Source: Oscillospiraceae bacterium (GTDB taxonomy: Bacteria > Bacillota > Clostridia > Oscillospirales > Oscillospiraceae). From it: a DNA stretch of 33,597 nt. Shown here one piece after another: positions 18,300 to 33,402 of the stretch. A model generated the notes under the pieces. The model was not told where the DNA came from. It made no database searches and saw only the letters and a program-made list of their open reading frames with translations. The stretch spans positions 1-33,597 of the forward strand of contig JAGAMN010000053.1 in assembly GCA_017624715.1 (NCBI GenBank), given 5' to 3'. Within the stretch, counting starts at the first letter, position 1. Each line of letters starts with the position of its first letter. Made by a program: the position numbers and the translations under genes.

Positions 18300-18302
18300 A
18301 GC

Positions 18303-19467: not shown

Positions 19468-19695
19468 ATGAAAAGCATTGAACAGAGAGTGAAGCAACCC
19501 TGTCCTCTGGAAGATATCTGTCTGGAAAGTCAGATCACAGGAGAATTGCTCCCTTCTGATGAAGCAATTGCCCAATTCTACAAGGATCATGATACCACGG
19601 AGGATTGGCATAGTGAGTGGAGGGAAACTGACATCTCTGCAGCATATGTGCGGGAAATGATCCGCTCTGTTGAAGAACAGAACTTAAAAATGTAA
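19468..19695 (+). CDS. Small acidic protein of 75 residues, unknown function
   Basis: I do not recognise this protein. It is soluble and acidic, with a CPLEDICLESQITGELLP turn region and a C-terminal helix (ISAAYVREMIRSVEEQNLKM). A TAAGGAG ribosome site precedes the ATG by 10 bases. It opens the accessory island and is closed by its own perfect terminator, so it is probably a separate transcript from the genes on both sides. Its size and charge would suit an anti-defence or regulatory peptide, but nothing in it shows that. Confidence 0.65.
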   Translation: MKSIEQRVKQPCPLEDICLESQITGELLPSDEAIAQFYKDHDTTEDWHSEWRETDISAAYVREMIRSVEEQNLKM

Positions 19696-19699
19696 TCGA

Positions 19700-19735
19700 A
19701 AGGCTGGCAGTCAAACCGACTGCCAGCCTTCTGCG
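19700..19735 (+). terminator. Strong intrinsic terminator after the 75-residue gene
   Basis: A perfect 13-bp stem (AAGGCTGGCAGTC with GACTGCCAGCCTT) has a 5-base loop AAACC and is followed by CTGCG. The stem is among the strongest in the window, but the T tract is short. Confidence 0.7.
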
Positions 19736-19751
19736 TGGATGGAGGGACAAT

Positions 19752-20609
19752 ATGAAACCGAAGGTAAGCGCGTTGATCCAGACCAGGGCGAACACTCTGG
19801 TTCTGGATTTCCCCAAAAGTATAGCAGAACTCCGTGTGGCATTGCTGCAGAGCGGCATCCCGGAGCCTCCCAGAGATATCTTCCTGATGGACAACGAAGG
19901 CGATCCCATTCGCGTAAAGGTCTATGGTGAAGATGAGCTGGGCAAACATCTGGCCCGGATCTTTTCGGAAACAGATGACTTGGCCAAGGTGAATACCGTT
20001 GTGTTTCTGGCAACAGATCCACGGACAGAACTGCGGGAGGAAATGCGCCAGAGTATCCTCTCAGATAAGTATGGCAGTGTGGGAGATTTTCTAACTGATG
20101 TACAGCAGATGCTTCAAAAGCTATCCGGATATACGGAATCCTTCTATTTCCCCCTGTCACCATACATTCAGGAAACCTTTGCGGACGAACCATACCGTGT
20201 CAGCAGCGAGTACCTTGCCGGGTATGAAGATGAGCTGTTGCAGGCACTGGAGGATATTCGCAGCCGGGATACGGTGAATATGGCACAGTATTATAACGAA
20301 CACTGCAGCCCAAAGCAGGAGGCAATCTCTATGGATTGGAGCTTTGAAGAAATCCGTGGACAGGTCTACGGCCGGGTGGATGTGCAGCTCAAGGAACCTC
20401 TGGCACCGGGAGAAAAGCTGTCCATGAAAGACTGGATCAGAGGGCAGAACTCAGACGGTGCCTTTGAAAGCTTTGAGGATCATGGAATCGCAGCGGAGGA
20501 CGGCTGGCTGACAGTGTCCTTTAGCGGCGAGGGACAGCAGGACTTCCTGTATGATCGGCATGAGATGGATTGCTACCTAGCCCAGCAGCTGGAGCAGGGT
20601 GGAATGTAG
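19752..20609 (+). CDS. Accessory protein of 285 residues, possibly a diverged ArdA-like N-terminal part
   Basis: The first 110 residues (VLDFPKSIAELRVALLQSGI, an I-F-L-M-D-N strand, then DELGKHLARIFSETDD) follow the order of the ArdA anti-restriction N-terminus seen in two later genes, but weakly. The middle is helical. The last 70 residues (KLSMKDWIRGQNSDGAFESF, then DGWLTVSFSGEG) form a separate beta-rich part I do not recognise. The protein is strongly acidic, as DNA-mimic anti-restriction proteins are. The ATG follows GGAGGGAC. It ends GGM, with ATG-TAG next to the ribosome site of the following gene. The ArdA link is an inference. Confidence 0.75.
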   Translation: MKPKVSALIQTRANTLVLDFPKSIAELRVALLQSGIPEPPRDIFLMDNEGDPIRVKVYGEDELGKHLARIFSETDDLAKVNTVVFLATDPRTELREEMRQSILSDKYGSVGDFLTDVQQMLQKLSGYTESFYFPLSPYIQETFADEPYRVSSEYLAGYEDELLQALEDIRSRDTVNMAQYYNEHCSPKQEAISMDWSFEEIRGQVYGRVDVQLKEPLAPGEKLSMKDWIRGQNSDGAFESFEDHGIAAEDGWLTVSFSGEGQQDFLYDRHEMDCYLAQQLEQGGM

Positions 20610-20617
20610 GTGAGCAT

Positions 20618-21127
20618 ATGGGAACACGCAGTCTGATCGCTAAACAGGTCGGCCCGGATGAGTACCGGACGATATTCTGCCAAATGGAAGGTCATCTGGA
20701 ATGTCAGGGCGCGATACTACTGGAACACTTTGCCACGCCAGATCAGGTGGACAAATTGCTTGATTTGGGTGACCTTTATCTGCTTCATCCGAAACTGGAG
20801 CCAGAGCCCGACCAGCATCACAGCTATGAGAAACCGCAGGCAGGTGTCACCGTTGCATACCATCGGGATTGGCAATGCACCAATGTTGAAGCGGAAATCA
20901 ATACACTTGAGGAACTGGATGGATCAGGCGGTATGATCGAGTTCGTCTATATCTTCGACCAGGAGAATCAATGGAAATACTTTCAGGGTGGTTACCTGGA
21001 TGAAGGATTGCGGGATGTGAAAGCCGATCTGGAAGCGCTGGAGCAAGGTGTTGATGTTCTGAAAGGACCACCCTTTGACTTTCTGGATGATCTGTCAGGG
21101 GATGAAATACAAGAACAAGCATTGTGA
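20618..21127 (+). CDS. MGTRS-family phage/ICE protein (169 residues), unknown function
   Basis: The start at 20618 gives MGTRSLIAKQ, a characteristic N-terminus of a protein common on phages and Clostridia ICEs (M-G-T-R-S, then D-E-Y-R-T-I-F-C and a LLDLGDLYLL segment). The protein is acidic, with no cofactor motif or membrane helix. A longer reading from 20570 lies inside the preceding gene. GGTGAG is the only ribosome site, about 6 bases upstream. It is followed 11 bases later by the next gene. No function is established as far as I know. Confidence 0.75.
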   Translation: MGTRSLIAKQVGPDEYRTIFCQMEGHLECQGAILLEHFATPDQVDKLLDLGDLYLLHPKLEPEPDQHHSYEKPQAGVTVAYHRDWQCTNVEAEINTLEELDGSGGMIEFVYIFDQENQWKYFQGGYLDEGLRDVKADLEALEQGVDVLKGPPFDFLDDLSGDEIQEQAL

Positions 21128-21138
21128 GGAAATAGGAA

Positions 21139-21852
21139 ATGGAAACTACTGGACGAATTACTGCATTCAACAATGCGAATGAACCGTTCTATATAGTTGA
21201 ACACAGCGACGGCAAGTTCAGCCTGTGTCTGCCGCTGGATATGCTCCCGGACGAATATTACCCCTACTGTCAGGAAGCTTTTGACGCCTATGCCGAAGAA
21301 ATCGGGGCATCCAAGCTCCAGCTTTCCGGCAGTCATCGGTTCGGTGATGGATATGACTGGCAGGCTGCTTTTACTCAGGCATTCGCAGGGGATCCCAATA
21401 TGGAGAAGATCAGCTTCGACTGCGAGACCAGCGGCTTCTTCTGCATCAGCCACGATCTGGCGATCCTGGAACAGTACGGTGCTGCTTTCCGGGGAATCTG
21501 TACGGATACTGCAAGGTTTATTCCTATCGTATCCCAGGGAATCCAGCGAATGGAGCAGCTGATGAAGGAACAGGAACGGCTGATGAAAACCGTCCGGGGG
21601 CAGCTTATGGAGAATCCCAATGCGATCTTCCATATCATGACCCCATACGGAAATGTCTCGCTTCACCCGATGGATACAAAGGCGCTGCTGGATGGAACCC
21701 GGTCAACCATTGATATCGAGGGGACTCATTATGCCGCCTTTGAACTTCTGGCTCAGGAGGTCACAGCCTCCCAGACAGATCTGTTTAATTCCAACTGCAT
21801 TCGGATGAAAACAGAGGAAGCGAGTTTGGACATGATCGAACAGACAATGTGA
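21139..21852 (+). CDS. Accessory protein sharing a 120-residue domain with the gene at 26267
   Basis: Residues 7-130 (FNNANEPFYIVEHSDGKFSL, then GDGYDWQAAFTQAF and the LEQYGAAFRGIC helix) match the C-terminal part of the 26267 gene (FNAANAPFYIMDYGDDRYGL, GNGYDWECVFKKAF, LEQLGSRFKEIC). I know no named function for this domain. Residues 140-165 are a charged helix. The rest is an unrecognised tail ending EQTM. GAGGAAATAGGA precedes the ATG. The stop is followed directly by GAGGTAAGGA of the next gene, so the gene belongs to a tight operon with the pentapeptide-repeat gene. Confidence 0.75.
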   Translation: METTGRITAFNNANEPFYIVEHSDGKFSLCLPLDMLPDEYYPYCQEAFDAYAEEIGASKLQLSGSHRFGDGYDWQAAFTQAFAGDPNMEKISFDCETSGFFCISHDLAILEQYGAAFRGICTDTARFIPIVSQGIQRMEQLMKEQERLMKTVRGQLMENPNAIFHIMTPYGNVSLHPMDTKALLDGTRSTIDIEGTHYAAFELLAQEVTASQTDLFNSNCIRMKTEEASLDMIEQTM

Positions 21853-21861
21853 GGTAAGGAT

Positions 21862-22656
21862 ATGGAGAATATATCAAATCCACCTGATGCCAAAACTGGT
21901 TTCCTGAATGCTGTCAATACGATAGTGGACCAGTACATAAGGGAAGCCTTGGAACAGTGTGAGAAGCCTGTGATTGCAATTTCCAGAGAGGATATTCAGG
22001 AGCGGCTTGCTATGATGCAGTATACAGCAGAAGAACTGATAATCGGTTTGCTGGCAGAGCGCAAGGAAACCGCATTTGTGAATGACTGCTCGGATCCTAT
22101 CACCATAGCACTGACACAGGAAGCAATCGATCAGTATCGGGCGCAGGAACGAAAGGAACTGGCATGGGAAGAAGTTGCAGTCATACACGCAAACCATACC
22201 CTCTGGCTGTATGGCAAGGGCGGTGAGCAGGCAGACTTCACCCTGTGTCAACTCCACGATATGGCATTGCCACACATGGTGTTTGATCATGGCATCTTTC
22301 GGAATGCGTTGCTGATGCATCTGGATCTGACCAATAGCAGCTTCTGCGATTGTGACTTTACGGGTACCCGGTTTATTGGGTGTGACATGCCCTCTACCAC
22401 AATGAGCCGGTGCTGCTTCCACGGAGCGGTCTTCGATGGCTGTAGAATGCGGGGAACGCAACTGAATCACGGAAATTTCGCGGGAGCATTCCTGCGGGAC
22501 TGTGATGTTTGGTCTGCTAATATGAAGGACATTTGCGTAGATAAGGTAGCACTCCAGAATACCAATCTGGATCAGGCGGACATTCGTGGCCTTATCGATG
22601 AGGAGGCTGCGTGGAAACGAATGATGGAACCTCTGGAGGAAATTCAAGGCATGTGA
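21862..22656 (+). CDS. Pentapeptide-repeat protein with a helical N-terminal domain
   Basis: Residues 125-240 form about 20 imperfect pentapeptide repeats (ADFTL, CDFTG, TRFIG, AVFDG, GNFAG, ANMKD, TNLDQ, ADIRG and others), which fold as a right-handed quadrilateral beta helix. Some such proteins (Qnr, MfpA) mimic DNA and protect gyrase. On a mobile element, protection from DNA-acting toxins or restriction is plausible but not shown. The first 120 residues are helical (TVDQYIREALEQCEKPVIAIS, then a QEAIDQYRAQERKELAWEEV helix) and recall immunity or regulatory domains rather than a known enzyme. Cysteine is frequent in the coil. The ATG follows GAGGTAAGGA by 2-5 bases. It ends QGM. Confidence 0.85.
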   Translation: MENISNPPDAKTGFLNAVNTIVDQYIREALEQCEKPVIAISREDIQERLAMMQYTAEELIIGLLAERKETAFVNDCSDPITIALTQEAIDQYRAQERKELAWEEVAVIHANHTLWLYGKGGEQADFTLCQLHDMALPHMVFDHGIFRNALLMHLDLTNSSFCDCDFTGTRFIGCDMPSTTMSRCCFHGAVFDGCRMRGTQLNHGNFAGAFLRDCDVWSANMKDICVDKVALQNTNLDQADIRGLIDEEAAWKRMMEPLEEIQGM

Positions 22657-22678
22657 CGCAGAAAGAGGGTGAATGATT

Positions 22679-23920
22679 ATGAAGAAAACAATGACAATTG
22701 AAATGGCGGCTGGGGGCTACATCGGAGAAGAGAAATACTTTGCAACGCTGGAGCTTCCAGCAAAGCCTCACGAAATACAGGATGCTTGCCATAAGCTGCG
22801 GATCACCCAAAACCGTGACACCAATCTACGGATGGAAGTTTGCAACTGTGAGATCCTGCCTGAACTGACCGATATACTGCTGGACAGTCCCAGTATGGAA
22901 GAAATGAATTTTCTTGCCCAGCGGCTGGCCCAGCTTTCTGACAGCGAAGCCATTGCCCTCCGGGGTGTATGGCAGCGGTTAGATAAAGCGGGATACCTGA
23001 AAGAACCCGTTCGGGCAATGGATCTGATCAATATGACCTATGGTCTGGAAAATGTAATGGTGGCATCCTGCGTCAGCAATGACCGGGATTTGGGTGAATT
23101 TGTTCTGGAGAACGATCTGGATGAGGATATTGCCAATCTGCCGGATGAGATGGTAGAGATGTTGGATCAGGAAGCGGTTGGACAGCGGCACCGGGAAAGC
23201 GAGGGTGGCGTATTTATCGGGTACCACTATGTGGTAGCAGGAGAATATCAGCTCCACCAGATCTACGCTGGGGTCCGTCTGCCTACCCAGGAGCAGGAAA
23301 AGCCTTTTGTGTTCCGGCTTCAGGTGGCGGAGTCCCCAGTGAATGACAGCACTGAAACCATGGGAACAGCAGAATGGATCAGCTTACCTATCGACCGGGA
23401 TCAGGCTGACCGGATCGCGCAGAAGCATAATGAGAGCTGCATTGAGGATTGCACCTTCTATGGCTTTGAATCCATCATCCCGCAAATCACAGCAGATCAC
23501 TATGGTGATATGCTCTCCTTTGTGCGGCTGAACCGGTTGGCACAGGAGATCGCCCAGATGAAACCCTCCGAGCAGGTAAAGCTGAAAGCGGTACTGGAAC
23601 ACGAAAAGCCTGGTACCATGGAAGGCATCCAGAGTGTGGTTGATCATCTGAGAGAGTACCAGCTCGACAACCGGATCGGGGATGCGGACAGCTACTTCAA
23701 GGAATACCTGCTGCGGCATCTGGACGCCCGGTTCGATGCACGGTGGCTGGATGGTCTTGCTGTCTGCACCGAAGGAACCAATCTGATGCAGCGGCTAGGA
23801 GCGGCAGAAACCGACTACGGCATCGTCTCCGCCAGAGGGGGTCAGCTATACGCACTGGTCCCTTTTGAGCAGGAACAGGTACAGGAGAAAGCAATGGAAA
23901 TGACGATGGGAGGTTACTAA
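22679..23920 (+). CDS. Tandem ArdA-like anti-restriction protein, first
   Basis: ArdA proteins are acidic DNA mimics that block type I restriction enzymes. This 413-residue protein contains two ArdA-like units. Unit 1 (about 10-185) has FATLELPAKPHEIQDACHKL, the EEMNFLAQRLAQLSDSEAIAL segment, a VSNDRDLGEFVLEN segment and DQEAVGQRHRESEGGVFIG, which parallels the Tn916 ArdA order ending YQAYGRDL. Unit 2 (about 220-395) repeats it (WISLPIDRDQADRIAQKH, LNRLAQEIAQMKPSEQVKL, YFKEYLLRHLD). The start at 22679 is 9 bases after AGAGGG; an ATG at 22673 is the alternative. The last codon of the GGY tail runs into TAATG of the next gene, and the GGAGG inside the tail is that gene's ribosome site. Confidence 0.85.
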   Translation: MKKTMTIEMAAGGYIGEEKYFATLELPAKPHEIQDACHKLRITQNRDTNLRMEVCNCEILPELTDILLDSPSMEEMNFLAQRLAQLSDSEAIALRGVWQRLDKAGYLKEPVRAMDLINMTYGLENVMVASCVSNDRDLGEFVLENDLDEDIANLPDEMVEMLDQEAVGQRHRESEGGVFIGYHYVVAGEYQLHQIYAGVRLPTQEQEKPFVFRLQVAESPVNDSTETMGTAEWISLPIDRDQADRIAQKHNESCIEDCTFYGFESIIPQITADHYGDMLSFVRLNRLAQEIAQMKPSEQVKLKAVLEHEKPGTMEGIQSVVDHLREYQLDNRIGDADSYFKEYLLRHLDARFDARWLDGLAVCTEGTNLMQRLGAAETDYGIVSARGGQLYALVPFEQEQVQEKAMEMTMGGY

Positions 23921-24803
23921 TGGCAAAAGCTGTTGATTTGTTCAGGTGCTCTTGGAAGAAACTCTGTTTGGCACCCAGGACAAAGTGGATACTGCCATCC
24001 AGCGGCTTCGTGCCTTTGAACCCCCGGAGGGGTACTTTGTAGCATTCTCAGGCGGCAAGGACAGCCAGTGCATCTACCACCTGTGCAAGGAAGCAGGTGT
24101 CAAATTTGATGCCCATTACAGCCATACCACGGTAGATCCGCCGGAAGCAGTCTACTTCATCCGGGAGCATTATCCTGACGTGATTGTGGACAAGCCGGGG
24201 ATCACCATGTGGCAGCTCATCGTAAAGAAAGGTATGCCGCCTACCCGCAAGGTGCGCTATTGCTGCGATGTGCTGAAAGAAGGCGGTGGACGTGGGCGGA
24301 TTGCGGTAACTGGGGTTCGCTGGGAGGAAAGCACCAAACGGAAGAATAACCGTGGACTGCTGGAACTGAACAACTACACCCGGCATTACATCAAGCTGAT
24401 GAACGACAACGATGAAGCACGGCGGATGTTTGAAACCTGCACCATGAAGTCCATGCACACCTTGAATCCGATCATTGACTGGACCAGTGAGGATGTTTGG
24501 GAATACCTCAATTCCCGAAACATCCCCCACTGCTGCCTCTACGATGAGGGCTTTGACCGGATCGGATGTATCGGATGCCCGCTGGCTGGACCTGCCCAGA
24601 TGCGCAAGGAATTTGCCCGGTACCCCAAATATGAGCAGGCATACCTTCGGGCGTTTGAGAAAATGCTCAAGGCCAGGGCGGGTAATGGTAAGCCCTACCA
24701 AAAGTGGCAAACAGCTGACGACGTTATGCGTTGGTGGCTCAGTGAGGAAAAACAGCAAAAGGTGGATGAAGATCAGCTGTCATTTTTCCTGTTGGATGCG
24801 TAA
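23920..24803 (+). pseudogene. PAPS-reductase-like PP-loop protein, apparent one-base deletion near the start
   Basis: The family transfers or activates sulfur using ATP at a PP-loop (PAPS reductase and the DndC-like group). The main frame shows the PP-loop SGGKDS (24048-24065) in FVAFSGGKDSQCIYHL, RYCCDVLKEGG, TGVRWEEStKR and CIGCPLAG. These cysteines could bind an iron-sulfur cluster or sulfur. That frame has no proper start: only GTG 23946 without a ribosome site, ahead of an in-frame TGA at 23934. ATG 23920 fits better, overlapping the previous stop as TAATG 8 bases after GGGAGG, but its frame (MAKAVDLFR) ends at 24042. Adding one base near 23944 would join MAKAVDLF to LLEETLFGTQDKV. The rest is intact. 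If the GTG is used it may still be functional; sulfur chemistry on DNA (Dnd) is unproven, as no dnd partners are here. Confidence 0.8.
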
Positions 24804-24844
24804 AAGCATTTGTTGCATCTGCTTCCATTTGGCTTGCTTCTTTG

Positions 24845-24863
24845 TTGCTTAGTGTGAATAGCT
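24845..24863 (+). repeat. Spacer motif TTGCTT-N3-GTGAATAGCT, copy 2
   Basis: This copy matches 16 of 19 bases with the one at 19386. It lies in the 110-base spacer before the RHH-like gene, which otherwise holds T-rich sequence but no clear promoter. Confidence 0.4.
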
Positions 24864-24920
24864 ATTACATCAAAAATAGAGTATGCTTGGCTTGCAAATC
24901 AAGAAAGGAGCGGCATGATT

Positions 24921-25250
24921 ATGGCAGAAACCAGAAACCTCTGCGCCCAGATTCCTGTAGACCTCCACGCAAAGGTCATCGAGGAAAAGAACGCTCTGGG
25001 GCAGGCACTCAGCGAATACATCACCAACATTCTTAAGGAACATTTTGAAGGAGGAAACAAAACTATGGCAAATACTGCAACCAAGACCCTGGCATTCCAG
25101 ATCTCCGAGGAACTGGATCAGCGGATCAAGAACTATCTGGCAGCGGAAAAGGAACGCACTGGCAAGAAGGTCAGCCAGCGGGAGTTCGTGGTGGGCCTCA
25201 TCATCCAGGCACTGGATGAGTACGACGCAGCCAAGCAGTCCGCAGAGTAA
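24921..25250 (+). CDS. Tandem ribbon-helix-helix-like DNA-binding protein
   Basis: The 109-residue protein carries two similar segments: NLCAQIPVDLHAKVIEEKNA followed by LSEYITNILKEHFE, and TLAFQISEELDQRIKNYLAA followed by SQREFVVGLIIQALDEY. Each is a short strand plus two helices, the pattern of RHH/Arc-type DNA-binding domains, so the chain resembles a dimer joined by a linker. It may regulate the accessory operon. The start could be ATG 24915 (4 bases after GGAG) or 24921 (10 bases); the N-terminus MAETRNLCAQ favours the latter. A terminator follows. Confidence 0.75.
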   Translation: MAETRNLCAQIPVDLHAKVIEEKNALGQALSEYITNILKEHFEGGNKTMANTATKTLAFQISEELDQRIKNYLAAEKERTGKKVSQREFVVGLIIQALDEYDAAKQSAE

Positions 25251-25264
25251 TTCACTGTCAATCA

Positions 25265-25297
25265 CCGCCAGGGGGAAACCTCTGGCGGATTATTATT
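25265..25297 (+). terminator. Intrinsic terminator after the RHH-like gene
   Basis: A 10-bp stem (CCGCCAGGGG with CCTCTGGCGG, one wobble) with a GAAA loop is followed by ATTATTATT. The next gene's AAGGAGG begins a few bases later. Confidence 0.75.
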
Positions 25298-25314
25298 GCA
25301 AGGAGGAAAACAAC

Positions 25315-25551
25315 ATGAACGTCGAGATCAAGTTGGACAGAGAAAAGTACCATGCATTAAAAATGAGTATGGAACAGAAAGGTACCACTGTCGAAGCAGA
25401 ACTGGCACAGGCGGTGGAGGTGCTGTATCAGAAGCAAGTCCCCAGCAGTGTCAAAGCATTCATTGAAAGCAAATCCAAAGGCAAGGGATACCGGTCCAAG
25501 CGGAAGCCGCAGGACACCTCTGCCTCTGCTGTGGGGATTGAGAGTAAGTGA
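25315..25551 (+). CDS. DUF6103-like protein
   Basis: The 78-residue product has the pattern of DUF6103: a strand NVEIKLDREKYHALKMSM, then QKGTTVEAELAQAVEVLYQK and VPSSVKAFIESK, followed by a basic tail (KGKGYRSKRKPQ). The same N-terminal layout opens the larger genes at 26267 and 27376, so it may be the free-standing form of that domain. Function is unknown; the size and strand-helix-helix order would allow DNA or protein binding. The ATG follows AAGGAGG by 9 bases. Its stop overlaps the GTG of the next gene. Confidence 0.75.
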   Translation: MNVEIKLDREKYHALKMSMEQKGTTVEAELAQAVEVLYQKQVPSSVKAFIESKSKGKGYRSKRKPQDTSASAVGIESK

Positions 25552-25775
25552 GTCAGGATGAGAAATATGGCAGAAAGAAAGCAATCCGACTGAAGTGCCT
25601 GGACTGCTGCTGCGGCAGTGCCATGGAGGTTCGACTCTGTGAATCCAGAAAATGCCCTCTTTGGCGGTTTCGCATGGGGCGGGAGTCTCAGGCAGAATCA
25701 GCCCCGGATTCGAAGGATTCGGAGAACAATCACGTGCGGGAAGCTCCACCCCAGTCAGCGGAGGATGACCGCTGA
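25548..25775 (+). CDS. Small cysteine-rich zinc-ribbon-like protein
   Basis: The GTG start overlaps the preceding stop (GTGA). The N-terminal half is CLDCCCGSAMEVRLCESRKC followed by PLWRFRMG, a cysteine-rich motif shared with many phage and ICE proteins of Clostridia. The cysteines could bind zinc. The rest is a polar, probably disordered tail (residues 48-75). Its stop overlaps the next start as TGATG. Role unknown; DNA or RNA binding is plausible. Confidence 0.8.
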   Translation: MSQDEKYGRKKAIRLKCLDCCCGSAMEVRLCESRKCPLWRFRMGRESQAESAPDSKDSENNHVREAPPQSAEDDR

Positions 25776-26236
25776 TGGCTCGTGTTTTGCGGAGATTTCT
25801 GCCTCAGAAAGCAAGGAGGAACAATAATGGATGGAGTGGGACTGCTGTGTGGAAGCAGAAACGGCTGAAGAAACAGCTTGGTTCCAAGTATTTCTTTGAA
25901 CAGAGGATTTCCGCAGCGGTAGTGAAGAATATGCTGGCAATGGTGAATGGAAGCAACCATTTTCTTACGGTAGCCAGCCTGACCGTTGGAATCGTGAAAC
26001 TGGAGGCCATTCTCTACTGGTACAACGGAAAATACTCTCTGGGATATGATGTCATGGTACGAGACTCTCCGGAATGCCCGGAATGGTCTTGCTATGAAAG
26101 CCTACAGGAAGAAGTGCGGTATAATGCGTGGAATCTGGAGCGGGAAATGTTTCTGGTGCTGGACAGGGCGGTAACCCGTCTCGGTCTGAGCTATACGGAA
26201 TATGTATTTCCGAAGCTGTATGGCGCCAGCTCCTGA
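25775..26236 (+). CDS. Conserved ICE protein (possibly DUF6329-like), 5' end uncertain
   Basis: Residues 38-153 (YFFEQRISAAVVKNMLAMV, then ASLTVGIVKLEAILYWYN and LEREMFLVLDRAVTRLGLSYTE) form a coherent globular domain that resembles a small Clostridia ICE family I tentatively link to DUF6329. The first 37 residues are basic, with a clump of Arg and Lys. The start chosen (ATG 25775, overlapping the previous stop) follows GGAGG by 10 bases. However, a much better ribosome site, AAGGAGG (25813-25819), points at ATG 25827 or 25831, which are in other frames and end within 14 or 23 codons. The gene may therefore carry a frameshift near its start, or the AGG-AGG codons are coincidental. Confidence 0.65.
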   Translation: MARVLRRFLPQKARRNNNGWSGTAVWKQKRLKKQLGSKYFFEQRISAAVVKNMLAMVNGSNHFLTVASLTVGIVKLEAILYWYNGKYSLGYDVMVRDSPECPEWSCYESLQEEVRYNAWNLEREMFLVLDRAVTRLGLSYTEYVFPKLYGASS

Positions 26237-26266
26237 AGAAAGTAATGAAGTAAGGAATATTGATTT

Positions 26267-27373
26267 ATGAATTCAACAGATATTACGGTGTTTTACAGTA
26301 CCCTGCGGACGGGGGCCTTGGAACGGATCCTGAAGGAACAGGGAAAATCCCTTGACTCTGCTGTGGAGGAAATGCTGGATGACCTGTATCAAAGAATCGT
26401 CCCGGAGCAGGAACGGACGGAAATCGAGGCAAGGATCCGCCAGGAAGAAGCACAGACAGCAGCAGAAACGGAGGCTGCACGGCGATTCGCTGTGTACCGC
26501 ATCCGGGAACTTGGCGAGGACAGCTACTTTACAAGCGAAGCTCATAATGACCTTTATCTGGCAGCTTGTGAGTGCCGTGAGTATTTGCAGGATCCCAAAC
26601 CGTTTCTGCTGCCTGACTATTTCTCGCACAGACAGATTTGCAATCAGTTCCGTTATTCCCAACTGGTAAATGATCTGGGGTACAATCCGCAGATTACCAT
26701 GGTGGTGGAGCTTGATGCGGATAAGGGAATGTGCATGGTACAGAAAGCCGGTGAGGATGACTCCTGGCATCAGTACCGGATGAAAGACCTGTCCACCGGT
26801 ATCTTCCGTGCAAAGCGGAAAGACGGACGTTCCTATGCTGAACGTAATAGCATTTTTGAGGAATTTATTGCGGAACGCGAGATTGCAATGCATCTGCCTG
26901 CCTATGACTACCAACTGCAGGAAGGAAAGCCTGTTGAACAGCGCATTGAGGAATTTAATGCCGCGAATGCTCCTTTCTACATCATGGACTACGGGGATGA
27001 CCGCTATGGTCTCAGCCTGCCCATCTCCTTCCTGTCACCTCCCTTTAGCAACTACGGTCAAAAGGCTTTCAATGCCTACGCTGCACAGCAGGGCGAAGAA
27101 GCAAAGCAGAATGGACTGTTTACCACCGGCAATGGTTATGACTGGGAGTGCGTGTTTAAGAAAGCCTTTGAAAACGATCCGCTCATGGAGAACATGAAGT
27201 TTGACCCCGAGGCTGGCGGCTTTTACAGCTATAGCTATGATCTGTCCACACTGGAACAGCTGGGAAGCCGATTCAAGGAAATCTGTGAAAGCGGACAGGC
27301 ATTCCGGGATCTGGTCTGCACAGCCCTGACGGAAGTGGAAATGAAGCAGAAGATGGATTTGGGAGGCATGTAG
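26267..27373 (+). CDS. Mosaic accessory protein: DUF6103-like + unknown domain + domain shared with 21139
   Basis: The 368-residue protein combines three parts. Residues 15-60 follow the DUF6103 pattern (LERILKEQGKSLDSAVEEML, then LYQRIVPEQER). Residues 70-215 match the body of the next gene (27376). Residues 226-350 (FNAANAPFYIMDYGDDRYGL, GNGYDWECVFKKAF) match the first 130 residues of the 21139 gene. No catalytic motif is visible and the protein is acidic. TAAGGAAT lies upstream of the ATG. The tail ends GGM, with GGAGG-C-ATG-TAG serving the GTG start of the next gene. It looks like a product of domain shuffling within the island. Confidence 0.78.
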   Translation: MNSTDITVFYSTLRTGALERILKEQGKSLDSAVEEMLDDLYQRIVPEQERTEIEARIRQEEAQTAAETEAARRFAVYRIRELGEDSYFTSEAHNDLYLAACECREYLQDPKPFLLPDYFSHRQICNQFRYSQLVNDLGYNPQITMVVELDADKGMCMVQKAGEDDSWHQYRMKDLSTGIFRAKRKDGRSYAERNSIFEEFIAEREIAMHLPAYDYQLQEGKPVEQRIEEFNAANAPFYIMDYGDDRYGLSLPISFLSPPFSNYGQKAFNAYAAQQGEEAKQNGLFTTGNGYDWECVFKKAFENDPLMENMKFDPEAGGFYSYSYDLSTLEQLGSRFKEICESGQAFRDLVCTALTEVEMKQKMDLGGM

Positions 27374-27375
27374 CT

Positions 27376-28050
27376 GTGGCGATTAAAGGGATTATGATCC
27401 ACTACAACCTACACCGGCTGGAAGCTCTGGAACAGGCACTGTCCAAGCAGGGGCTGGAACTGGATACGGTTCTGGTTCCTGCCATGGAACGGCTCTATGA
27501 GCAGTATGTCCCGGCACCTGTCCGGGGCGGCATTGAAATGAAGGTGCGTGAGGATGAACTGCGGGATTCCGGAGAAAAGAGAAGTTCCATCACTCTCCTC
27601 TGCTGTACGGAGCGTGGCCGGGAGTCATACCTGATGGAAACCAGCTCTGTGCTGGATGGCTTCTACAAAGTGGCAGGCTGTTTCAAAAACTACTTTGAAC
27701 AGGGCCAGAATATGGGCTTCGCCCGGTTCTCCGGAATGCAGGTATTGGAAGCAGATGTGTTTGAGGAGCTGTGTGAAACGGCGATGCAGCACAAGCTCAT
27801 CAACCATGTCATCGATTGGAATCTGGATATGGGGATCGTGAGCTATATGAATGCCCAGACCGGCTTTCAGAGCTTCTACCTGGAAAGTGATGTATTGAAA
27901 GCAGAAATGGCTACAAAGGCAAGTGCGCATGAAAGCTTTGAACAGATCACGGAGCAGTTCCATCAGAAGTTGGTGGGAAAAGAATGCGATGTCTATGGCA
28001 CTTACCTTCCCCGGACAAGACCGGATACTCCGCAGATGGGAGGTATGTAA
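27376..28050 (+). CDS. Accessory protein: DUF6103-like N-terminus plus domain shared with 26267
   Basis: The GTG start is 9 bases after the GGAGG inside the previous gene's end. Residues 14-55 follow the DUF6103 pattern (LEALEQALSKQGLELDTVLV, then LYEQYVPAPVRGGIE). Residues 70-205 align with the middle of the preceding gene, including a RESYLMETSSVLDGFYKVA region against EDSYFTSEAHNDLYLAACE. The C-terminus ends PQMGGM. It is a shorter paralogue of 26267, lacking the third domain. Function unknown; soluble and acidic. It belongs to an operon whose next gene starts at the following base. Confidence 0.78.
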   Translation: MAIKGIMIHYNLHRLEALEQALSKQGLELDTVLVPAMERLYEQYVPAPVRGGIEMKVREDELRDSGEKRSSITLLCCTERGRESYLMETSSVLDGFYKVAGCFKNYFEQGQNMGFARFSGMQVLEADVFEELCETAMQHKLINHVIDWNLDMGIVSYMNAQTGFQSFYLESDVLKAEMATKASAHESFEQITEQFHQKLVGKECDVYGTYLPRTRPDTPQMGGM

Positions 28051-29184
28051 ATGATTCAGTTGAAACTTTCCAAGCAAGGGATGCGGGAGGGGGTGGCATT
28101 GAACCTTCCTGCAACTCCGGCAGAAGTAAGCGAAGCCTGTGCATGGTTTGACCGTTTGGGTATTCCCCAGAATGAAGTAAAGATCGTAGGTGCCAGCAGC
28201 CCGGTTCGCACGCTGGACAAGTATATCGTTTCCCATGGGGATCTCCACCGGACGGGTGATCTGGATAAGCTGAACATCTTGGCAGAGCAGCTTGAGCAGA
28301 TGGACAAGCGGCAGCAGGACATTCTGGGTGGAGCTGTTGATTCGGAATGCATCAGTTCTCTGGATGATGTGCTGGAAATTTTATCTCACCTGGACCGCTA
28401 TGTGATCCTCCCTAATATTGTAACCAACGAGGAATTGGGACGGTTTCTGGTGGATACCGGGTATAAGGACTTCCCAGAAGAAACGCACCCCTATCTGAAT
28501 TATGCTGCCATCGGGATGGAATACTATACCAACAATGGCGGCGCCTATGGACCCGGAGGCTATGTCCGCCGCAAGGCTGACCCGGAGCTGGAGGTGCAGG
28601 TCCAAAAGCCTTTGATTACCATCCACCTGTATTCTGCAAAACTATCCCAAGCCAGAGCGGAACCCTACCGACTGGCTCTTCCTGCATTGGATGAGGAAAT
28701 GGATCAGGCGGCTCAGGCGCTTGGAGTGGATAAACTCTCTGATGCATCCATCGTGAAGATGGAAATTGGGGATGAAACTCTGAAAGATCTGATCCCCATG
28801 GAGTGTGTCAGTGTCACGGAGGCTAATCATCTGGCAATGACCATAGAGGAACTTCGGCAGTGGGATGAGCTGTACCAAAAGTATCTGGCGGTGCTGTCCG
28901 TGGAGCAGCCGGAAACTATGACGAAAGCCCTATATTTGTCTGTTGAGCTGGATGACTACGAATTTATGCCGGAGGATGACTATGAATACGGTCAGGCGGT
29001 GCTGCGGCGCCATGGTGCCACAGATGAGTTATTGGACCGGCTGCTTGGCTATCTAAACATGGAAGGTCTGGGCAGAGATGCAAGAGCGGATGACGGAGTC
29101 CGAAAAACGGAGTATGGAGATCTCCGCCGATGCAGCGAACCCTTTCCCGATATTACACAACAAATTGAACTTGGAGGAATGTAA
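28051..29184 (+). CDS. Tandem ArdA-like anti-restriction protein, second
   Basis: The 377-residue product has two ArdA-like units. Unit 1 (about 10-180) has GVALNLPATPAEVSEACAWF, DLDKLNILAEQLEQMDKRQQ, a TNEELGRFLVDTG segment and HPYLNYAAIGMEYYTNNGGA, a good match to ArdA order. Unit 2 (about 190-345) repeats it (YRLALPALDEEMDQAAQALG, VTEANHLAMTIEELRQWDEL, YGQAVLRRHGATDELLDRL, YLNMEGLGRDARADD). It is acidic, as DNA mimics are. The ATG comes right after the previous stop (TAAATG) with GGAGG 8 bases upstream. It ends GGM and its own GGAGG serves the next gene. It differs considerably from the 22679 protein, so the two may target different restriction enzymes. Confidence 0.82.
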   Translation: MIQLKLSKQGMREGVALNLPATPAEVSEACAWFDRLGIPQNEVKIVGASSPVRTLDKYIVSHGDLHRTGDLDKLNILAEQLEQMDKRQQDILGGAVDSECISSLDDVLEILSHLDRYVILPNIVTNEELGRFLVDTGYKDFPEETHPYLNYAAIGMEYYTNNGGAYGPGGYVRRKADPELEVQVQKPLITIHLYSAKLSQARAEPYRLALPALDEEMDQAAQALGVDKLSDASIVKMEIGDETLKDLIPMECVSVTEANHLAMTIEELRQWDELYQKYLAVLSVEQPETMTKALYLSVELDDYEFMPEDDYEYGQAVLRRHGATDELLDRLLGYLNMEGLGRDARADDGVRKTEYGDLRRCSEPFPDITQQIELGGM

Positions 29185-29185
29185 C

Positions 29186-29299
29186 ATGAAGAAGAAAGTA
29201 ATGATCACCCTGGCAGCTCTGGCGGCTGCCGGAGCCGCAGTAACCGGCTGCATCTGCCTTGCCAATACCAAGGTCTATGGACATGGCAGATTCCGCTAA
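29186..29299 (+). CDS. Tiny lipoprotein or membrane peptide of 37 residues
   Basis: From ATG 29186, 8 bases after GGAGG, the frame encodes KKKVMITLAALAAAGAAVTGC then ICLANTKVYGHGRFR. The basic start, hydrophobic stretch and AVTGC fit a lipoprotein signal (Cys21), leaving only 16 mature residues; a single-pass membrane peptide is the alternative. A longer frame from 29078 lies in the previous gene. Its stop overlaps the next gene by 22 bases and a terminator-like hairpin follows at 29313. Such small membrane peptides are easily missed; a role in entry exclusion or signalling is possible but unsupported. Confidence 0.6.
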   Translation: MKKKVMITLAALAAAGAAVTGCICLANTKVYGHGRFR

Positions 29300-29753
29300 T
29301 CTGAATGTACGGCCCGCTTCCCAGGAGGAAGCGGGTCTCTTTTTTGCTATGAAGCCGGAGGAAGATGCCTCTCTTGGTTGCATCGGGCATGTCCGTATGG
29401 ACTTTGGCAGAAGTGGCCGGAAGTTCTGGCACACTTGGCATTCCCGTGGCCCGGAGGAATGGAACTGTCAGTTGTTCAAGGATGAACTGACTGAGGTGGT
29501 GGATATGCTCCGGGAAAGTGTGCTGAAGGATCTGAATGGGATGCGGGAATTCTGCCAGAGTCACGGCGGTGCCATCCCTGGTGGTTGGTCTCAGAACTAT
29601 GGCTTCGTTGTGGAAACGCAAAACTACCGATACTGCCTGCGGTGTAATCCCGCACCCGGAGATTATCAAGCCTATCTGACCTGCTTCGATAAGCATGTTC
29701 AGGAACTGAACCAGTCGGGGCAGGAACAGACCGTCCAGATGGGAGGTATGTGA
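29277..29753 (+). CDS. Conserved Clostridia ICE protein (RPA-x-EE ... GCIGHxRxDFG family)
   Basis: The region NVRPASQEEAGLFFAMKPEE followed by GCIGHVRMDFGRSGRKFWHT and a YGFVVETQNYRYCLRCNP segment matches a family common on Clostridia mobile elements, whose function I do not know. The N-terminal RPA-x-EE part belongs to the family, so the start is at ATG 29277 or 29283, not ATG 29349. Consequently the terminator-like hairpin at 29313 lies inside the coding sequence. No good ribosome site precedes the start (AAGG only), and it overlaps the preceding small gene by 22 bases, so translation is probably coupled. It ends VQMGGM. Confidence 0.75.
   Translation: MDMADSANLNVRPASQEEAGLFFAMKPEEDASLGCIGHVRMDFGRSGRKFWHTWHSRGPEEWNCQLFKDELTEVVDMLRESVLKDLNGMREFCQSHGGAIPGGWSQNYGFVVETQNYRYCLRCNPAPGDYQAYLTCFDKHVQELNQSGQEQTVQMGGM
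29313..29345 (+). terminator. Terminator-like hairpin inside the 5' coding region
   Basis: A perfect 9-bp stem (CCCGCTTCC with GGAAGCGGG) and a CAGGA loop are followed by TCTCTTTTTT. It lies 13 bases after the 37-residue ORF and within the first codons of the next gene. If active, it would cut off downstream expression unless ribosomes translate through it. Confidence 0.7.
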
Positions 29754-29755
29754 CC

Positions 29756-30106
29756 ATGGCGATCCTTTTCTCTGCTGTGGGGATCCGAGCCGGAGATGCA
29801 GAACTAAAGTTTCTGGTTGGTGGTATCCCCAAAGAACTGGAGGATCTGGAAAAAAATGTCCGGGTAGAGAATCTGCTCATCGATCAATCTGATGATGTGA
29901 AAGTGAGCGTCCAGGCATCCGCATACCGCTGGGGCGTGGGGGCGGACACCAATGCCACCTGGGATGATCTGCTGCGGATTATGATCCAGATGGAAGAAAA
30001 TCCTAACTTTCTGAGTGAGAAGTGCGACCATGTGGAGGATGTGAACTTTTCCTTTGACTGGTCACAGCAGGAACTGTTTGGACTAAAAATGGAGGAAGTG
30101 CTATGA
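29756..30106 (+). CDS. Small acidic accessory protein (116 residues), unknown function
   Basis: I do not recognise it. The ATG at 29756 is 9 bases after GGAGG; a GTG at 29750 is too close. The first 35 residues are mixed strands and helices, a central part (VKVSVQASAYRWGVGADTNA) is beta-like, and the C-terminus is an acidic amphipathic region (EEN to FDWSQQELFG). Overall it is acidic and soluble, so a DNA-mimic or protein-inhibitor role would be in keeping with the island, but nothing specific supports it. Its stop overlaps the next start (ATGA). Confidence 0.7.
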   Translation: MAILFSAVGIRAGDAELKFLVGGIPKELEDLEKNVRVENLLIDQSDDVKVSVQASAYRWGVGADTNATWDDLLRIMIQMEENPNFLSEKCDHVEDVNFSFDWSQQELFGLKMEEVL

Positions 30107-30978
30107 ATGTTGCAGGCATGATAAACGATAGACTCAATGCCCCCTTTACCGGCCCTCTGCTGTCGGACATGACAGCTACAGCAGATGGAGCGGGAGAAGG
30201 CCGGAGCCATCTGACGGCAAAAGAAATTCAGGATATGGAATCCATTCTGCGGGACGGAATGGTTGGCTATGCCTATCTGTATCCCCATGGGGAGGAGTTT
30301 CCCCAGGTGTATGTGTTCAGCATGACACCTGAGAATATCGCCAACTTCATTGGCCAGCATCGTGCAGACTGCTCCGAGATGACTCTGACAGACCGGATGG
30401 ATATGACGGTGCTGACTACCTACGGGGAATTCATCGACAAGTGTCCTGACCGTCAGCTTTTGCAGGAGGTGCTGCAGCACCTTGTCCCGATCCAATGTGG
30501 TGAGGCAGAACCTAAGGAAGTAGTATCCGTATCGAGAGATACTTATGATCTGTACGATGATCTGCTGGAAGAAGCACGGAAAGGTCTGACACCAGAGGAT
30601 CTGAAGCAGGCTGAGCTGTCTGCCAAAAGCACCGTGTGGCATTACTATAAGCCGGGAGTGGATGTGAGTGCCTGTCCCTATCTGGAAGCAAAGTGGATAG
30701 GAGAAAAGAATCTACGAAGCTGTAAGCTGGAAAACACCCCGGAGAATCTGGCAGCATTCATCCAGCAAAAGAATGATGTGGAAGAAATCTCTTTTCGGGA
30801 TCCCAACGGTGCCGAGGTAATCATTGCGAGACAGGGATATGTTCACATGTGTCTGGATGAAGCCTATCTTAAGAACCGGCTTCAGCCTGCTCTGACAGAG
30901 CAGCGCCGGAGTGGAGATGCGCCGGTGATCCAAGAAGCGGATACACCGGTCCAGTCGGATATGACAATGGAGATGTAA
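30103..30978 (+). CDS. Accessory protein of 291 residues with an internal repeat
   Basis: No known domain recognised. Residues 50-130 (VGYAYLYPHGEEFPQVYVFS, then TPENIANFIGQHRAD) and residues 175-270 (VSACPYLEAKWIGEKNLRSC, then TPENLAAFIQQKNDVEE) seem to be two copies of one fold, each with a TPEN-[IL]-A-x-FI helix start. The linker and tail are polar. It starts within the previous stop (ATGA). The C-terminus ends MEM before TAA-T-ATG of the next gene. It is acidic like its neighbours. Confidence 0.7.
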   Translation: MNVAGMINDRLNAPFTGPLLSDMTATADGAGEGRSHLTAKEIQDMESILRDGMVGYAYLYPHGEEFPQVYVFSMTPENIANFIGQHRADCSEMTLTDRMDMTVLTTYGEFIDKCPDRQLLQEVLQHLVPIQCGEAEPKEVVSVSRDTYDLYDDLLEEARKGLTPEDLKQAELSAKSTVWHYYKPGVDVSACPYLEAKWIGEKNLRSCKLENTPENLAAFIQQKNDVEEISFRDPNGAEVIIARQGYVHMCLDEAYLKNRLQPALTEQRRSGDAPVIQEADTPVQSDMTMEM

Positions 30979-30979
30979 T

Positions 30980-31369
30980 ATGGCGGAACTGACCAAAGAG
31001 GAATTTGTCCAGCAGCTCAAAGAAATCGCTCCTGTCTCGGATACGGCTGCACAGGCATGGTGTCAGTGGTCTTCAGAATTGGAGAAAATGGATCGTGCAG
31101 ATGAGATTCTCCCGGAGTGGCCGTATAAGTCTGAAGCAGCCTTTCGTGGCGAGCTCATTAAGCAGTTCACGAAACTCAAAACCCGGCTCGGTGAAGCTGT
31201 GGTCGGGCAGGTACTCTCCCTTGGTGATTTGCAACACTGCCTGTATCCCTGGGAGATTGTTCCCGCGGGGGAGCATCTGCATAAGGGCGGTGATCTGAAG
31301 GAGCTTCCGGATATGTCCATTAAGGGATCTCTGGATGGAGTAGAAGAGTATCTGGAAATGAGAATGTAG
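30980..31369 (+). CDS. Accessory protein of 129 residues, unknown function
   Basis: Not recognised. It begins MAELTKEEFVQQLKEIAP, with an acidic, mostly helical N-terminal 90 residues (two long amphipathic helices around 5-17 and 60-80). A shorter region near LGDLQHCLYPWEIVPAGEHL contains one Cys and two His. The ATG is one base after the previous stop, with GGAG about 8 bases upstream. It ends EMRM followed by TAGGTG. Part of the same accessory operon; no motif gives a function. Confidence 0.65.
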   Translation: MAELTKEEFVQQLKEIAPVSDTAAQAWCQWSSELEKMDRADEILPEWPYKSEAAFRGELIKQFTKLKTRLGEAVVGQVLSLGDLQHCLYPWEIVPAGEHLHKGGDLKELPDMSIKGSLDGVEEYLEMRM

Positions 31370-31377
31370 GTGTGTAG

Positions 31378-31782
31378 ATGAAAGAACAGAACCAATCTAA
31401 CACTCCGCTGCAGATCAGCAGTCTTGCGGAACTGAAACGGTACCTCCAGCCCGGAATGGAGCTGGAGGTGTCCTATCACAGCAAGCATCCCGGTCTGGTT
31501 GGGTTGCGGCGTGTCATAACGAAGGTACAAAGCAATGCCTACTTTACCGTGGTTAAGGATCAGCCAGACCATTGGTACTCTGTCTGCAATGATGGCCGGG
31601 GATTTCGATCCGGGATTGAAAGAGCATCCCAGTACATCTTTGCGGGCTCGAAGATAACGGTTCTTGACCCTATGAAAAGGGACGGCAGTGTGCTGTACGA
31701 AATGGAAGTGTATCAGGGTGAGCAGCAGATGGCTGACACGTCCTGCCTGGGGCAGACGGAGGAAATGCTGCTCCATATGTAA
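31378..31782 (+). CDS. Conserved ICE protein (134 residues), SH3-like or OB-like fold
   Basis: The body (LQISSLAELKRYLQPGMELE, then GLVGLRRVITKVQSNAYFTV and HWYSVCNDGRGFRSGIERAS) is beta-rich and resembles a small protein repeatedly found near the mobilization genes of Clostridia elements. Its function is not known to me; the alternating strands and basic segments suggest nucleic-acid or protein binding. A start at 31378 gives MKEQNQSN; GTAGGTG is the only upstream purine-rich site. It ends LLHM. It is the last gene of the closely spaced accessory run. Confidence 0.7.
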   Translation: MKEQNQSNTPLQISSLAELKRYLQPGMELEVSYHSKHPGLVGLRRVITKVQSNAYFTVVKDQPDHWYSVCNDGRGFRSGIERASQYIFAGSKITVLDPMKRDGSVLYEMEVYQGEQQMADTSCLGQTEEMLLHM

Positions 31783-32973: not shown

Positions 32974-33402
32974 ATGAGTGAAAAAACACAGCAAGCACCA
33001 GAGAAAGAACTGAAGCGGAGATTCCAGCTCTGGCTTAGACCGTCTGTGCTGGATATGGCAGAAGAACTGTACAAAGGCGATAACTGTATCAGCAAAAGTG
33101 AGTTCATCGAAAAGGCCATCCAGTTTTATGCAGGGTATCTCTATTCCAAGCAATCACAGGATTACCTACCCAAGATCGTCACATCCACCATCAAAGGAAT
33201 TACGGCAGAGAACACCAATCAGATATGCCGAATCCTGTTTAAGCTGGCTGTAGAACTGTCCATCACCATGAATGTGGTGGCTGCCACCTGCAATATCAGC
33301 CGGGAACAGTTGGATCAGCTTCGCGGAATGTGTGTATCCCAGGTAAAGAAGACCAATGGATCTTACTCGTTCACGGATGCCTACGATCTACAAAAGCGGT
33401 AA
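32974..33402 (+). CDS. Ribbon-helix-helix relaxosome (mobilization accessory) protein
   Basis: This 142-residue protein begins with a charged tail, then an RHH-like DNA-binding segment (RRFQLWLRPSVLDMAEELYK, then CISKSEFIEKAIQFYAGYL), a beta strand and two helices as in MobC-type accessory proteins. Residues 60-125 (VTSTIKGITAENTNQICRIL, then LAVELSITMNVVAATCNI) form a helical dimer or relaxase-binding part. It would bind oriT and help the relaxase nick. AGTGGAGGA precedes the ATG by about 4-7 bases. The relaxase gene starts 3 bases after its stop. Confidence 0.82.
   Translation: MSEKTQQAPEKELKRRFQLWLRPSVLDMAEELYKGDNCISKSEFIEKAIQFYAGYLYSKQSQDYLPKIVTSTIKGITAENTNQICRILFKLAVELSITMNVVAATCNISREQLDQLRGMCVSQVKKTNGSYSFTDAYDLQKR

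What the first reader, a model, noticed from the sequence alone, without database searches (positions are those of the whole stretch)
19468..31782. Domain-shuffled accessory island, probably an anti-defence cluster
About 20 packed genes use a small set of domains: ArdA-like units (22679 and 28051 in tandem, perhaps 19752), DUF6103-like units (25315, 26267, 27376), a 26267/27376 body domain, and a 21139/26267 domain. With a pentapeptide-repeat protein and a nearby oriT, this looks like a store of DNA-mimic and inhibitor proteins that protects incoming DNA. Several members have no known function and could be new anti-restriction or anti-CRISPR types.
Basis: partly seen in the sequence, partly recalled or inferred. 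Interest (0 to 1): 0.75.

Follow-up and report, generated by a model that had tools for sequence, protein, structure and literature searches.

The report
Shared tail tags conjugation's anti-restriction proteins
A mobile DNA element of a bacterium carries a cluster of anti-restriction and unknown proteins that share a short tail containing methionine, which many DNA-transfer enzymes of related elements also carry; this suggests, but does not yet prove, that these proteins are shipped into the new cell together with the DNA.

Summary
The island is real: 20 genes (19468-32582) in a conjugative element with TrbL, VirB4, MobC and a MobL-type relaxase. Both ArdA genes encode two ArdA units in one chain; DUF6103, body and Imm51-like domains are shuffled; 19752 is not ArdA. 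From VirB4 to MobC the window has 14.7 kb, 26 relatives 2-9 kb. Anti-defence is supported for ArdA, open for the rest, unlikely for the DUF6103/body core.

The surprise is a C-terminal tail. 12 of 20 island proteins have Met in their last four residues (chromosomal baseline 22/325). In relatives 14 soluble families carry it (124/164), including ArdA, SpoVG, a Toprim primase and relaxases (14/24); 16 control families, with VirB4, TrbL, MobC and coupling protein, do not (7/188). Out of sample: 24/44 against 3/61, small DUF6103 apart (8/18). It follows the element, not the domain: SpoVG copies beside element genes end in Met 11/11, copies without such neighbours 0/5; Tn1549-like elements share another tail. 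Translational coupling explains the Gly-Gly, not the Met. Best reading: a type IV secretion boarding signal, so these proteins travel with the DNA. Against: the window's own relaxase and two close kin lack it; nothing was tested at the bench.

The parts
22673..23920 (+). Double ArdA protein (two ArdA units in one chain); tail ...AMEMTMGGY
   Evidence: Pfam PF07275 38.8 bits; two units by iterated profile
28051..29184 (+). Double ArdA protein; tail ...TQQIELGGM
   Evidence: Pfam PF07275 55.8 bits; AF2 model with pLDDT under 50 at 178-184 (linker) and 370-377 (tail); profile of the family hits PDB 2w82/7bto/7btr, E 7.6e-9
26267..27373 (+). DUF6103-like + body + Imm51-like fusion; tail ...KMDLGGM
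   Evidence: AF2 model mean pLDDT 88.1
27376..28050 (+). DUF6103-like + body protein; tail ...DTPQMGGM
21139..21852 (+). Imm51-like domain + second domain (21C); tail ...MIEQTM
25282..25551 (+). DUF6103 small protein, no tail; start uncertain (ORF from 25045)
   Evidence: Pfam above cut-off; conserved upstream of MobC in relatives
19752..20609 (+). Two-part protein (19N+19C), not ArdA; tail ...LEQGGM
29259..29753 (+). D29 family protein; tail ...TVQMGGM; start uncertain
30103..30978 (+). Protein with an internally repeated stretch; tail ...DMTMEM
30980..31369 (+). Unknown; tail ...LEMRM
31378..31782 (+). Unknown family found in two other loci (L102, L110); tail ...EMLLHM
19468..19695 (+). Unknown 75-aa protein; tail ...EQNLKM
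21862..22656 (+). Pentapeptide-repeat protein; tail ...EEIQGM
   Evidence: Pfam
29750..30106 (+). Unknown family; ends GLKMEEVL (Met at -5, not counted as a tail)
23946..24803 (+). PAPS-reductase family protein, no tail
   Evidence: Pfam 83.5 bits; PADLOC BrxP and DndC models
2820..3314 (+). SpoVG-like protein outside the island; ends MLPMGLY (Met at -4)
   Evidence: Pfam PF04026 77 bits
12638..13478 (+). Two further tailed genes (12638-13054 ...GQQFM; 12987-13478 ...DAQSM)
13475..14218 (+). DUF3849 protein; tail ...TMDTQSM
   Evidence: Pfam; family 6 of 6 tailed
1458..2390 (+). D12 adenine DNA methyltransferase, no tail
   Evidence: Pfam
14403..19349 (+). T4SS genes (TrbL, VirB4, NlpC/P60-like and small neighbours), no tails
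32974..33402 (+). MobC-like protein (name recalled; no Pfam match), no tail; a relaxase match starts at 33406 and is cut by the contig end

Best explanation
The island is an expanded cargo of a MobL-type conjugative element at a fixed slot between VirB4/NlpC and MobC. At least the two double ArdA proteins most likely block type I restriction enzymes by DNA mimicry. The short, Gln/Glu-rich, Met-containing C-terminal tail shared by these proteins, by the primase and relaxase of many relatives and by other soluble accessory proteins most likely serves as a type IV secretion boarding signal read by the VirD4 coupling protein. The proteins would then be injected with the DNA and protect it before any gene of the element is expressed in the recipient. 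Shown here: the tail, its distribution, its independence of domain family and of downstream gene position, and its change with element type. Inferred: recognition by the T4SS, delivery, and the function of every protein, ArdA included (its role follows from its family).
For: Baseline: 22 of 325 chromosomal ORFs of 8 relatives have Met in the last four residues. Element families seen in at least 4 elements: 14 tail families 124/164, 16 control families 7/188. Tail families include relaxase 14/24, DUF3991/Toprim primase 12/21, ArdA 26/34, DUF6103+body 17/18, SpoVG 5/5, DUF3849 6/6, 19C 9/10, D29 (with two 31378 proteins) 9/10, ankyrin-like 7/8, ART-like 3/4. Controls: VirB4 0/33, NlpC/peptidase 0/29, MobC 0/20, coupling protein 2/22, D12 methylase 0/9, TrbL 0/7. 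By a simple hydropathy rule no tail family has membrane helices. Out of sample: 24/44 against 3/61. SpoVG paralogues: 11/11 copies beside element genes end in Met, 0/5 copies without such neighbours do (one of these...TIME, has Met at -2). A copy inside a Tn1549-like element ends KEARDDR, where that element's ArdA ends KEHDDR and its DUF3801 protein AAHEDR. Tn1549-like elements, other pattern: relaxase 10/12, ArdA 10/14, DUF3801 18/28, SpoVG 4/4 against TrbL 0/9, VirB4 0/10, VirD4 0/20, NlpC 0/8, baseline 5/325. The tail is unordered in the ArdA model. Precedent: an F-plasmid T4SS delivers SSB, PsiA, PsiB and other plasmid proteins (PMC8406263, abstract start and passages); C-terminal signals are one known kind (PMC11288057, passages).
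Against: The window's own relaxase, read on contig C57 (79-nt exact overlap with the window end), ends EKKQAMGIRD without the tail, and so do two close kin (G422 GLRL, G289 GLKQ). Only 14/24 and 8/18 relaxases have Met in the last four residues. Out of sample DUF3846 was 0/4, Body 0/1, 24915 0/1, and small DUF6103, a control family before (1/11), was 8/18; C5 methylase, a control, was 2/6. In Tn1549-like loci the pattern also fits 2/5 MobC-like and 2/4 of one further family, and it was fixed after all those tails had been seen. In 26267 the model continues as a helix to residue 366, so that tail may not be fully free. Family members share ancestry, so counts are not independent; there are about 14 families. 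The baseline used ORFs of at least 100 aa, the families genes of at least 60 aa. No experiment.
Confidence: 0.55

Rival explanations
1. The tails are a by-product of translational coupling: the end of one gene carries the Shine-Dalgarno sequence of the next.
For: 42 of 52 Gly-Gly pairs in the last ten residues of tail-family members are GGA GGN, i.e. an embedded GGAGG; several window genes end GGGAGGTATGTAA or alike directly before the next start.
Against: In tail families Met in the last four is as frequent when the next called gene is on the other strand (33/40; some of these may be spurious ORFs) or more than 60 nt away (20/27) as when it is within 20 nt (56/79); control families are 0/107 at <=20 nt. 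Without any SD-like 4-mer in the last 33 nt it is still 47/66. Where Met is the last residue, its ATG is followed in frame by the stop, so it cannot be the next start.
Confidence: 0.08
2. The tail is a degradation signal (C-degron) that keeps these proteins short-lived until transfer is induced.
For: A short C-terminal tag on many different soluble proteins fits protease adaptors as well as a translocation signal; membrane machine parts lack it.
Against: Soluble controls (MobC, methylases, VirB4) lack it. The tail type changes between element types, which a host protease would not ask for.
Confidence: 0.15
3. The tail docks proteins to a common element-encoded partner (relaxosome, DUF6103 adaptor or chaperone) without export.
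For: Relaxase, primase, SpoVG and ArdA could all work on element DNA; DUF6103 is conserved next to MobC.
Against: ART-like and ankyrin-like proteins carry it too; no partner identified.
Confidence: 0.15
4. The island is ordinary ArdA-type anti-restriction cargo expressed early in the recipient, and the tails have no role in transfer. (Not exclusive of the other rivals.)
For: Anti-defence islands in leading regions are known (PMC11541004, passages); MobC and the relaxase start follow directly.
Against: Does not explain the tails; oriT and transfer direction unknown; in the relatives seen the ArdA cluster lies upstream of the T4SS genes.
Confidence: 0.2

Closest known systems
ArdA (Tn916 Orf18; PF07275; PDB 2w82)
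   Same: Family by profile; acidic; on a conjugative element
   Different: Two units in one chain (solved chain 165 aa, here 377-415 aa), plus a Met tail; activity untested
Polyvalent proteins of conjugative elements (Iyer et al. 2017, PMC5512222, passages read)
   Same: ArdA and primase domains in Firmicutes conjugative elements, proposed there to be delivered with the DNA; shuffled domains
   Different: Mostly separate short genes here; in the held text the terms 'translocation signal', 'secretion signal' and 'methionine' do not occur
Proteins carried by the F-plasmid T4SS (PMC8406263, PMC11288057; passages)
   Same: Soluble element proteins suspected of riding the conjugation channel with the relaxase
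   Different: There delivery was measured and signals were diverse; here one short shared tail per element type, no delivery measured
C-terminal T4SS signals (Agrobacterium VirB/D4 and Legionella Dot/Icm substrates)
   Same: C-terminal address tags
   Different: [quoted passage not shown] this one is Gln/Glu-rich, poor in Lys/Arg, and Met-containing
Leading-region anti-defence islands (PMC11541004, passages)
   Same: Clusters with ardA and methylases on conjugative elements
   Different: Position relative to oriT not established here

Membership tests
ArdA | Sequence profile PF07275 above cut-off | tested here: met
   22673 38.8 bits, 28051 55.8 bits, cut-off 27; PDB 2w82 E 7.6e-9 with the family profile
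ArdA | ArdA fold | tested here: inconclusive
   AF2 model with mean pLDDT 87.6 and two similar halves; the fold search never ran, machine busy
ArdA | Inhibition of type I restriction | not testable with these tools
   needs a plating assay
ArdA (19752) | ArdA profile match | tested here: not met
   no match; hhalign aligns only the last 12 columns
Imm51 | PF15595 above cut-off | tested here: met
   26267 48.3 bits, cut-off 29.8; 21139 with 24.4 bits is below
Imm51 | Neutralises a partner toxin encoded beside it | not testable with these tools
   no toxin family above cut-off among the 20 proteins scanned with Pfam; role here unknown
DUF6103 | PF19598 above cut-off | tested here: met
   25282 gene 33.1 bits, cut-off 24.2; 26267 (16.7) and 27376 (15.9) are below
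T4SS C-terminal translocation signal | Shared with the relaxase of the same element type | tested here: inconclusive
   14/24 relatives and 8/18 out of sample yes; the window's own relaxase no
T4SS C-terminal translocation signal | Absent from machine parts that stay in the donor | tested here: met
   VirB4 0/33, TrbL 0/7, coupling protein 2/22, MobC 0/20
T4SS C-terminal translocation signal | Needed and sufficient for transfer | not testable with these tools
   needs a Cre-type reporter assay
Leading-region anti-defence island | Lies in the first DNA to enter, next to oriT | not tested
   nic site and transfer direction not determined

The most novel reading that the evidence does not exclude
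Each type of Bacillota conjugative element has its own short C-terminal address tag, shared by its relaxase and a dozen or more passenger protein families (ArdA, primase, SpoVG, ART-like, Imm51-like). The passenger list of an element, including new anti-defence proteins, could then be read from sequence alone, and any domain could become a passenger by gaining the tail.
Probability: 0.45. Interest if true: 0.88.

Novelty: new variant of a known kind. Interest (0 to 1): 0.75.

Why it matters
Which proteins travel with conjugating DNA, and how the machine selects them, is to my knowledge largely open in Gram-positive elements. If the tail is the signal, it would explain how an element can defend its DNA before its genes are expressed. 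It would give a sequence rule to list passenger proteins and nominate unknown ones as anti-defence candidates, and it offers a simple bench test.

Tried and rejected
Megablast of the island against plasmids found nothing. NCBIfam gave no match for the 10 of 20 island proteins handed to it. PHROGs, with the same 10, placed only 20570 clearly (two unknown families, E 8e-13 and 3e-12); the rest were weak or absent, among them an anti-restriction PHROG for 28051 at E 0.098. tRNA and Rfam scans of the window were empty. One phage record matched half of 26267 (28%, E 2e-8). Genome contigs gave a single relative, L100 (goat rectum Oscillospiraceae MAG, 89% in ArdA). Rejected: 19752 as ArdA; coupling as the source of the Met; acidity as a sign of DNA mimicry. 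Fold searches never ran, so the models of 28051 and 26267 were not compared with known structures. DUF6103 is not named in the paper library. No tail of this kind was found in print: searches, open-licence papers only; I read passages of PMC5512222, PMC3482391, PMC11541004, PMC11288057, PMC12624023 and PMC8406263 and only listings of the others.

Dropped before counting: 4 of 34 families (nos. 18, 26, 30, 32), judged by eye to be antisense or unrelated; one of them, no. 32, had Met in the last four in 2 of 4 members. Families were joined by blastp at E 1e-6, so remote kinship between them is not excluded. The gene caller takes the longest non-overlapping ORFs, so some starts and a few genes are wrong. 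Out-of-sample rows include fragments (for example two pieces of the G783 relaxase) and a few doubtful TrbL hits; they were counted as they came. In that test 8 tail profiles (ankyrin, fam29, ART, ArdA, D29, Imm51, 29750, 31378) and 2 control profiles (NlpC, Y-polymerase) had no hit. Of the 20 SpoVG places, the tandem pair G513:C2 (unclear context; one of two has Met in the last four) and two copies with the other tail type are left out of the 11/11 and 0/5; some of the 11 are also in the discovery families. 'No element neighbour' there means none of 7 profiles in about 3.2 kb. The labels Tn1549-like, MobC, C5 methylase, Y-polymerase and ART-like are recalled or given by eye.

Full report
What is there. 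The window is contig C46 of a 2.27-Mb, 69-contig genome. It carries a conjugation module: a D12 adenine methylase (1458), a SpoVG-like protein (2820), two large surface-type proteins and two sortase-like genes (named by eye), DUF3849 (13475), TrbL (14403), VirB4 (16482), an NlpC/P60-like protein (18303), a MobC-like protein (32974) and the start of a relaxase. The last 79 nt of the window equal the first 79 nt of contig C57, where a relaxase frame and a 610-aa ORF of coupling-protein size follow, so C57 probably continues the element.

The island. Between NlpC and MobC lie 20 genes, all on the + strand. From VirB4 to MobC the distance is 14,675 bp here and 2,065-9,027 bp in the 26 related loci where both genes were found on one strand, so the window shows an expansion at a fixed slot. 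The slot's usual content is a DUF6103 protein (26 of 26) and a body-domain protein (17 of 26) before MobC; these are best seen as element core genes. In relatives, ArdA, 19752-like, 29259-like and sometimes Imm51-like genes occur as a cluster upstream of the D12 methylase and T4SS genes, so compared with the relatives seen they stand in an unusual place in the window.

Domains. Both ArdA genes code for two ArdA units in one chain, an architecture seen 43 times among the loci scanned, duplicates included. The AlphaFold model of 28051 shows two confident halves joined by an unordered linker. Shuffling is shown by DUF6103+Body+Imm51 (window and L100), D29+Imm51 (G080), Imm51+21C and ArdA+ArdA+19C (G603). 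19752 is not ArdA.

The tail. The profile comparison of 19752 with ArdA aligned only the last 12 columns, and the alignment of body and Imm51 proteins showed the same kind of ending on proteins that share nothing else. In the window, 12 of 20 island proteins and 4 of 20 others have Met in the last four residues; the 4 are the SpoVG-like, 12638, 12987 and DUF3849 proteins. The chromosomal baseline, 20 stretches of 8 relatives, is 22/325 (7/325 end in Met). Among 34 families found in at least 4 elements, 4 were dropped; of the other 30, 14 have Met in the last four in at least half of their members (124/164) and 16 do not (7/188). Tail carriers have no predicted membrane helix: ArdA, relaxase, DUF3991/Toprim primase, SpoVG, DUF3849, DUF3846, DUF6103+body, 19C, D29, 24915, ankyrin-like (below Pfam's cut-off), ART-like (named from its sequence; Pfam gave no match) and two unnamed ones. 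Non-carriers are VirB4, TrbL, NlpC/peptidase, the coupling protein, MobC, two methylase types, a Y-family polymerase and, in this set, small DUF6103 proteins (1/11). Composition of the last 12 residues in the tail families: Met 13%, Gln 13%, Glu 12%, Lys 3%, Arg 3%; baseline Met 2%, Gln 3%, Glu 7%, Lys 7%, Arg 8%.

Controls. (1) Coupling: Met does not depend on where the next gene lies (33/40 opposite strand, 20/27 beyond 60 nt, 12/13 at 21-60 nt, 56/79 within 20 nt, 3/5 no next gene), Gly-Gly mostly is an embedded GGAGG (42/52). (2) Out of sample: 5 IMG/VR loci and stretches of 11 genomes from other families of the class, with profiles and measure fixed beforehand: relaxase 8/18, primase 8/12, fam21 4/4, 19C 2/2, SpoVG 1/1, DUF3849 1/1, DUF3846 0/4, Body 0/1, 24915 0/1 (24/44); VirB4 0/8, TrbL 0/5, MobC 0/16, coupling protein 0/14, D12 0/1, w15872 1/5, w15621 0/5, w12296 0/1, C5 methylase 2/6 (3/61); small DUF6103, a control before, 8/18, a group ending GMTMSM or alike. 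(3) Paralogues: of the SpoVG copies in 14 relatives, 11/11 with neighbouring element genes end in Met; of 5 without such neighbours none does, though one has Met at -2; a tandem pair of unclear context is 1/2 by Met in the last four; two more end KEARDDR and KEARDAR, the first inside a Tn1549-like element. (4) Another element type: in Tn1549-like loci, endings of the form [DEN]R or EL are shared by relaxase 10/12, ArdA 10/14, DUF3801 18/28, SpoVG 4/4 and one further gene 2/2, against 0/47 for TrbL, VirB4, VirD4 and NlpC together and 5/325 baseline. This pattern was written down after all these tails had been seen, and it also fits 2/5 MobC-like proteins and 2/4 of one other family; it is supporting evidence, not a clean test.

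Interpretation. A tag that is shared by different soluble proteins, includes the relaxase and primase in many elements, is missing from machine parts, and changes with the element while the protein domain stays the same fits a type IV secretion boarding signal best. Protein delivery by conjugation machines is established elsewhere (PMC8406263, PMC11288057, passages only), and delivery of such proteins by conjugative elements was proposed by Iyer et al. (PMC5512222, passages only). The main weakness is that the window's own relaxase and two close kin lack the tail, so in this subfamily the relaxase would need another signal.

Verdict. The shared tail is the finding worth following.

Noticed in passing
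window 4407-8291: Large surface-type protein with a 267-bp tandem repeat (5.1 copies, 80% matches), beside a second such protein (8400) and two sortase-like genes (10622, 11427); named by eye.
   Followed up: no
window 23946-24803: PAPS-reductase family protein without a tail; PADLOC matches BrxP and DndC models, so it may belong to a DNA-modification or defence function.
   Followed up: partly
window 31842-32582: Protein that looks to the eye like a RepA/AAA_25-type ATPase without an intact nucleotide-binding loop; Pfam gives no significant match.
   Followed up: no
window 25548-25775: Small Cys-rich protein that looks zinc-binding, also present in L100.
   Followed up: no
L194 2590-2862 (G000:C57): 90-aa HTH-like protein (by eye) directly after the relaxase that ends SYEMKMTM, i.e. 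carries the tail although the relaxase does not.
   Followed up: no
L120 and L121 (G377, G414): The Imm51+21C protein is split into two ORFs, with one TGA counted, in two related genomes; recoding or decay was not examined.
   Followed up: no
L126 13994-15130, L129 15718-16845, L140 11329-12465: A protein that looks like a C5 DNA methyltransferase (by eye) stands between the 24915-like gene and the Imm51/ArdA genes in close relatives; the window has a PAPS-reductase gene in its island.
   Followed up: no
window 29186-29258: Short ATG-started frame with an upstream GGAGG between 28051 and 29259, so the start of 29259 is uncertain.
   Followed up: no
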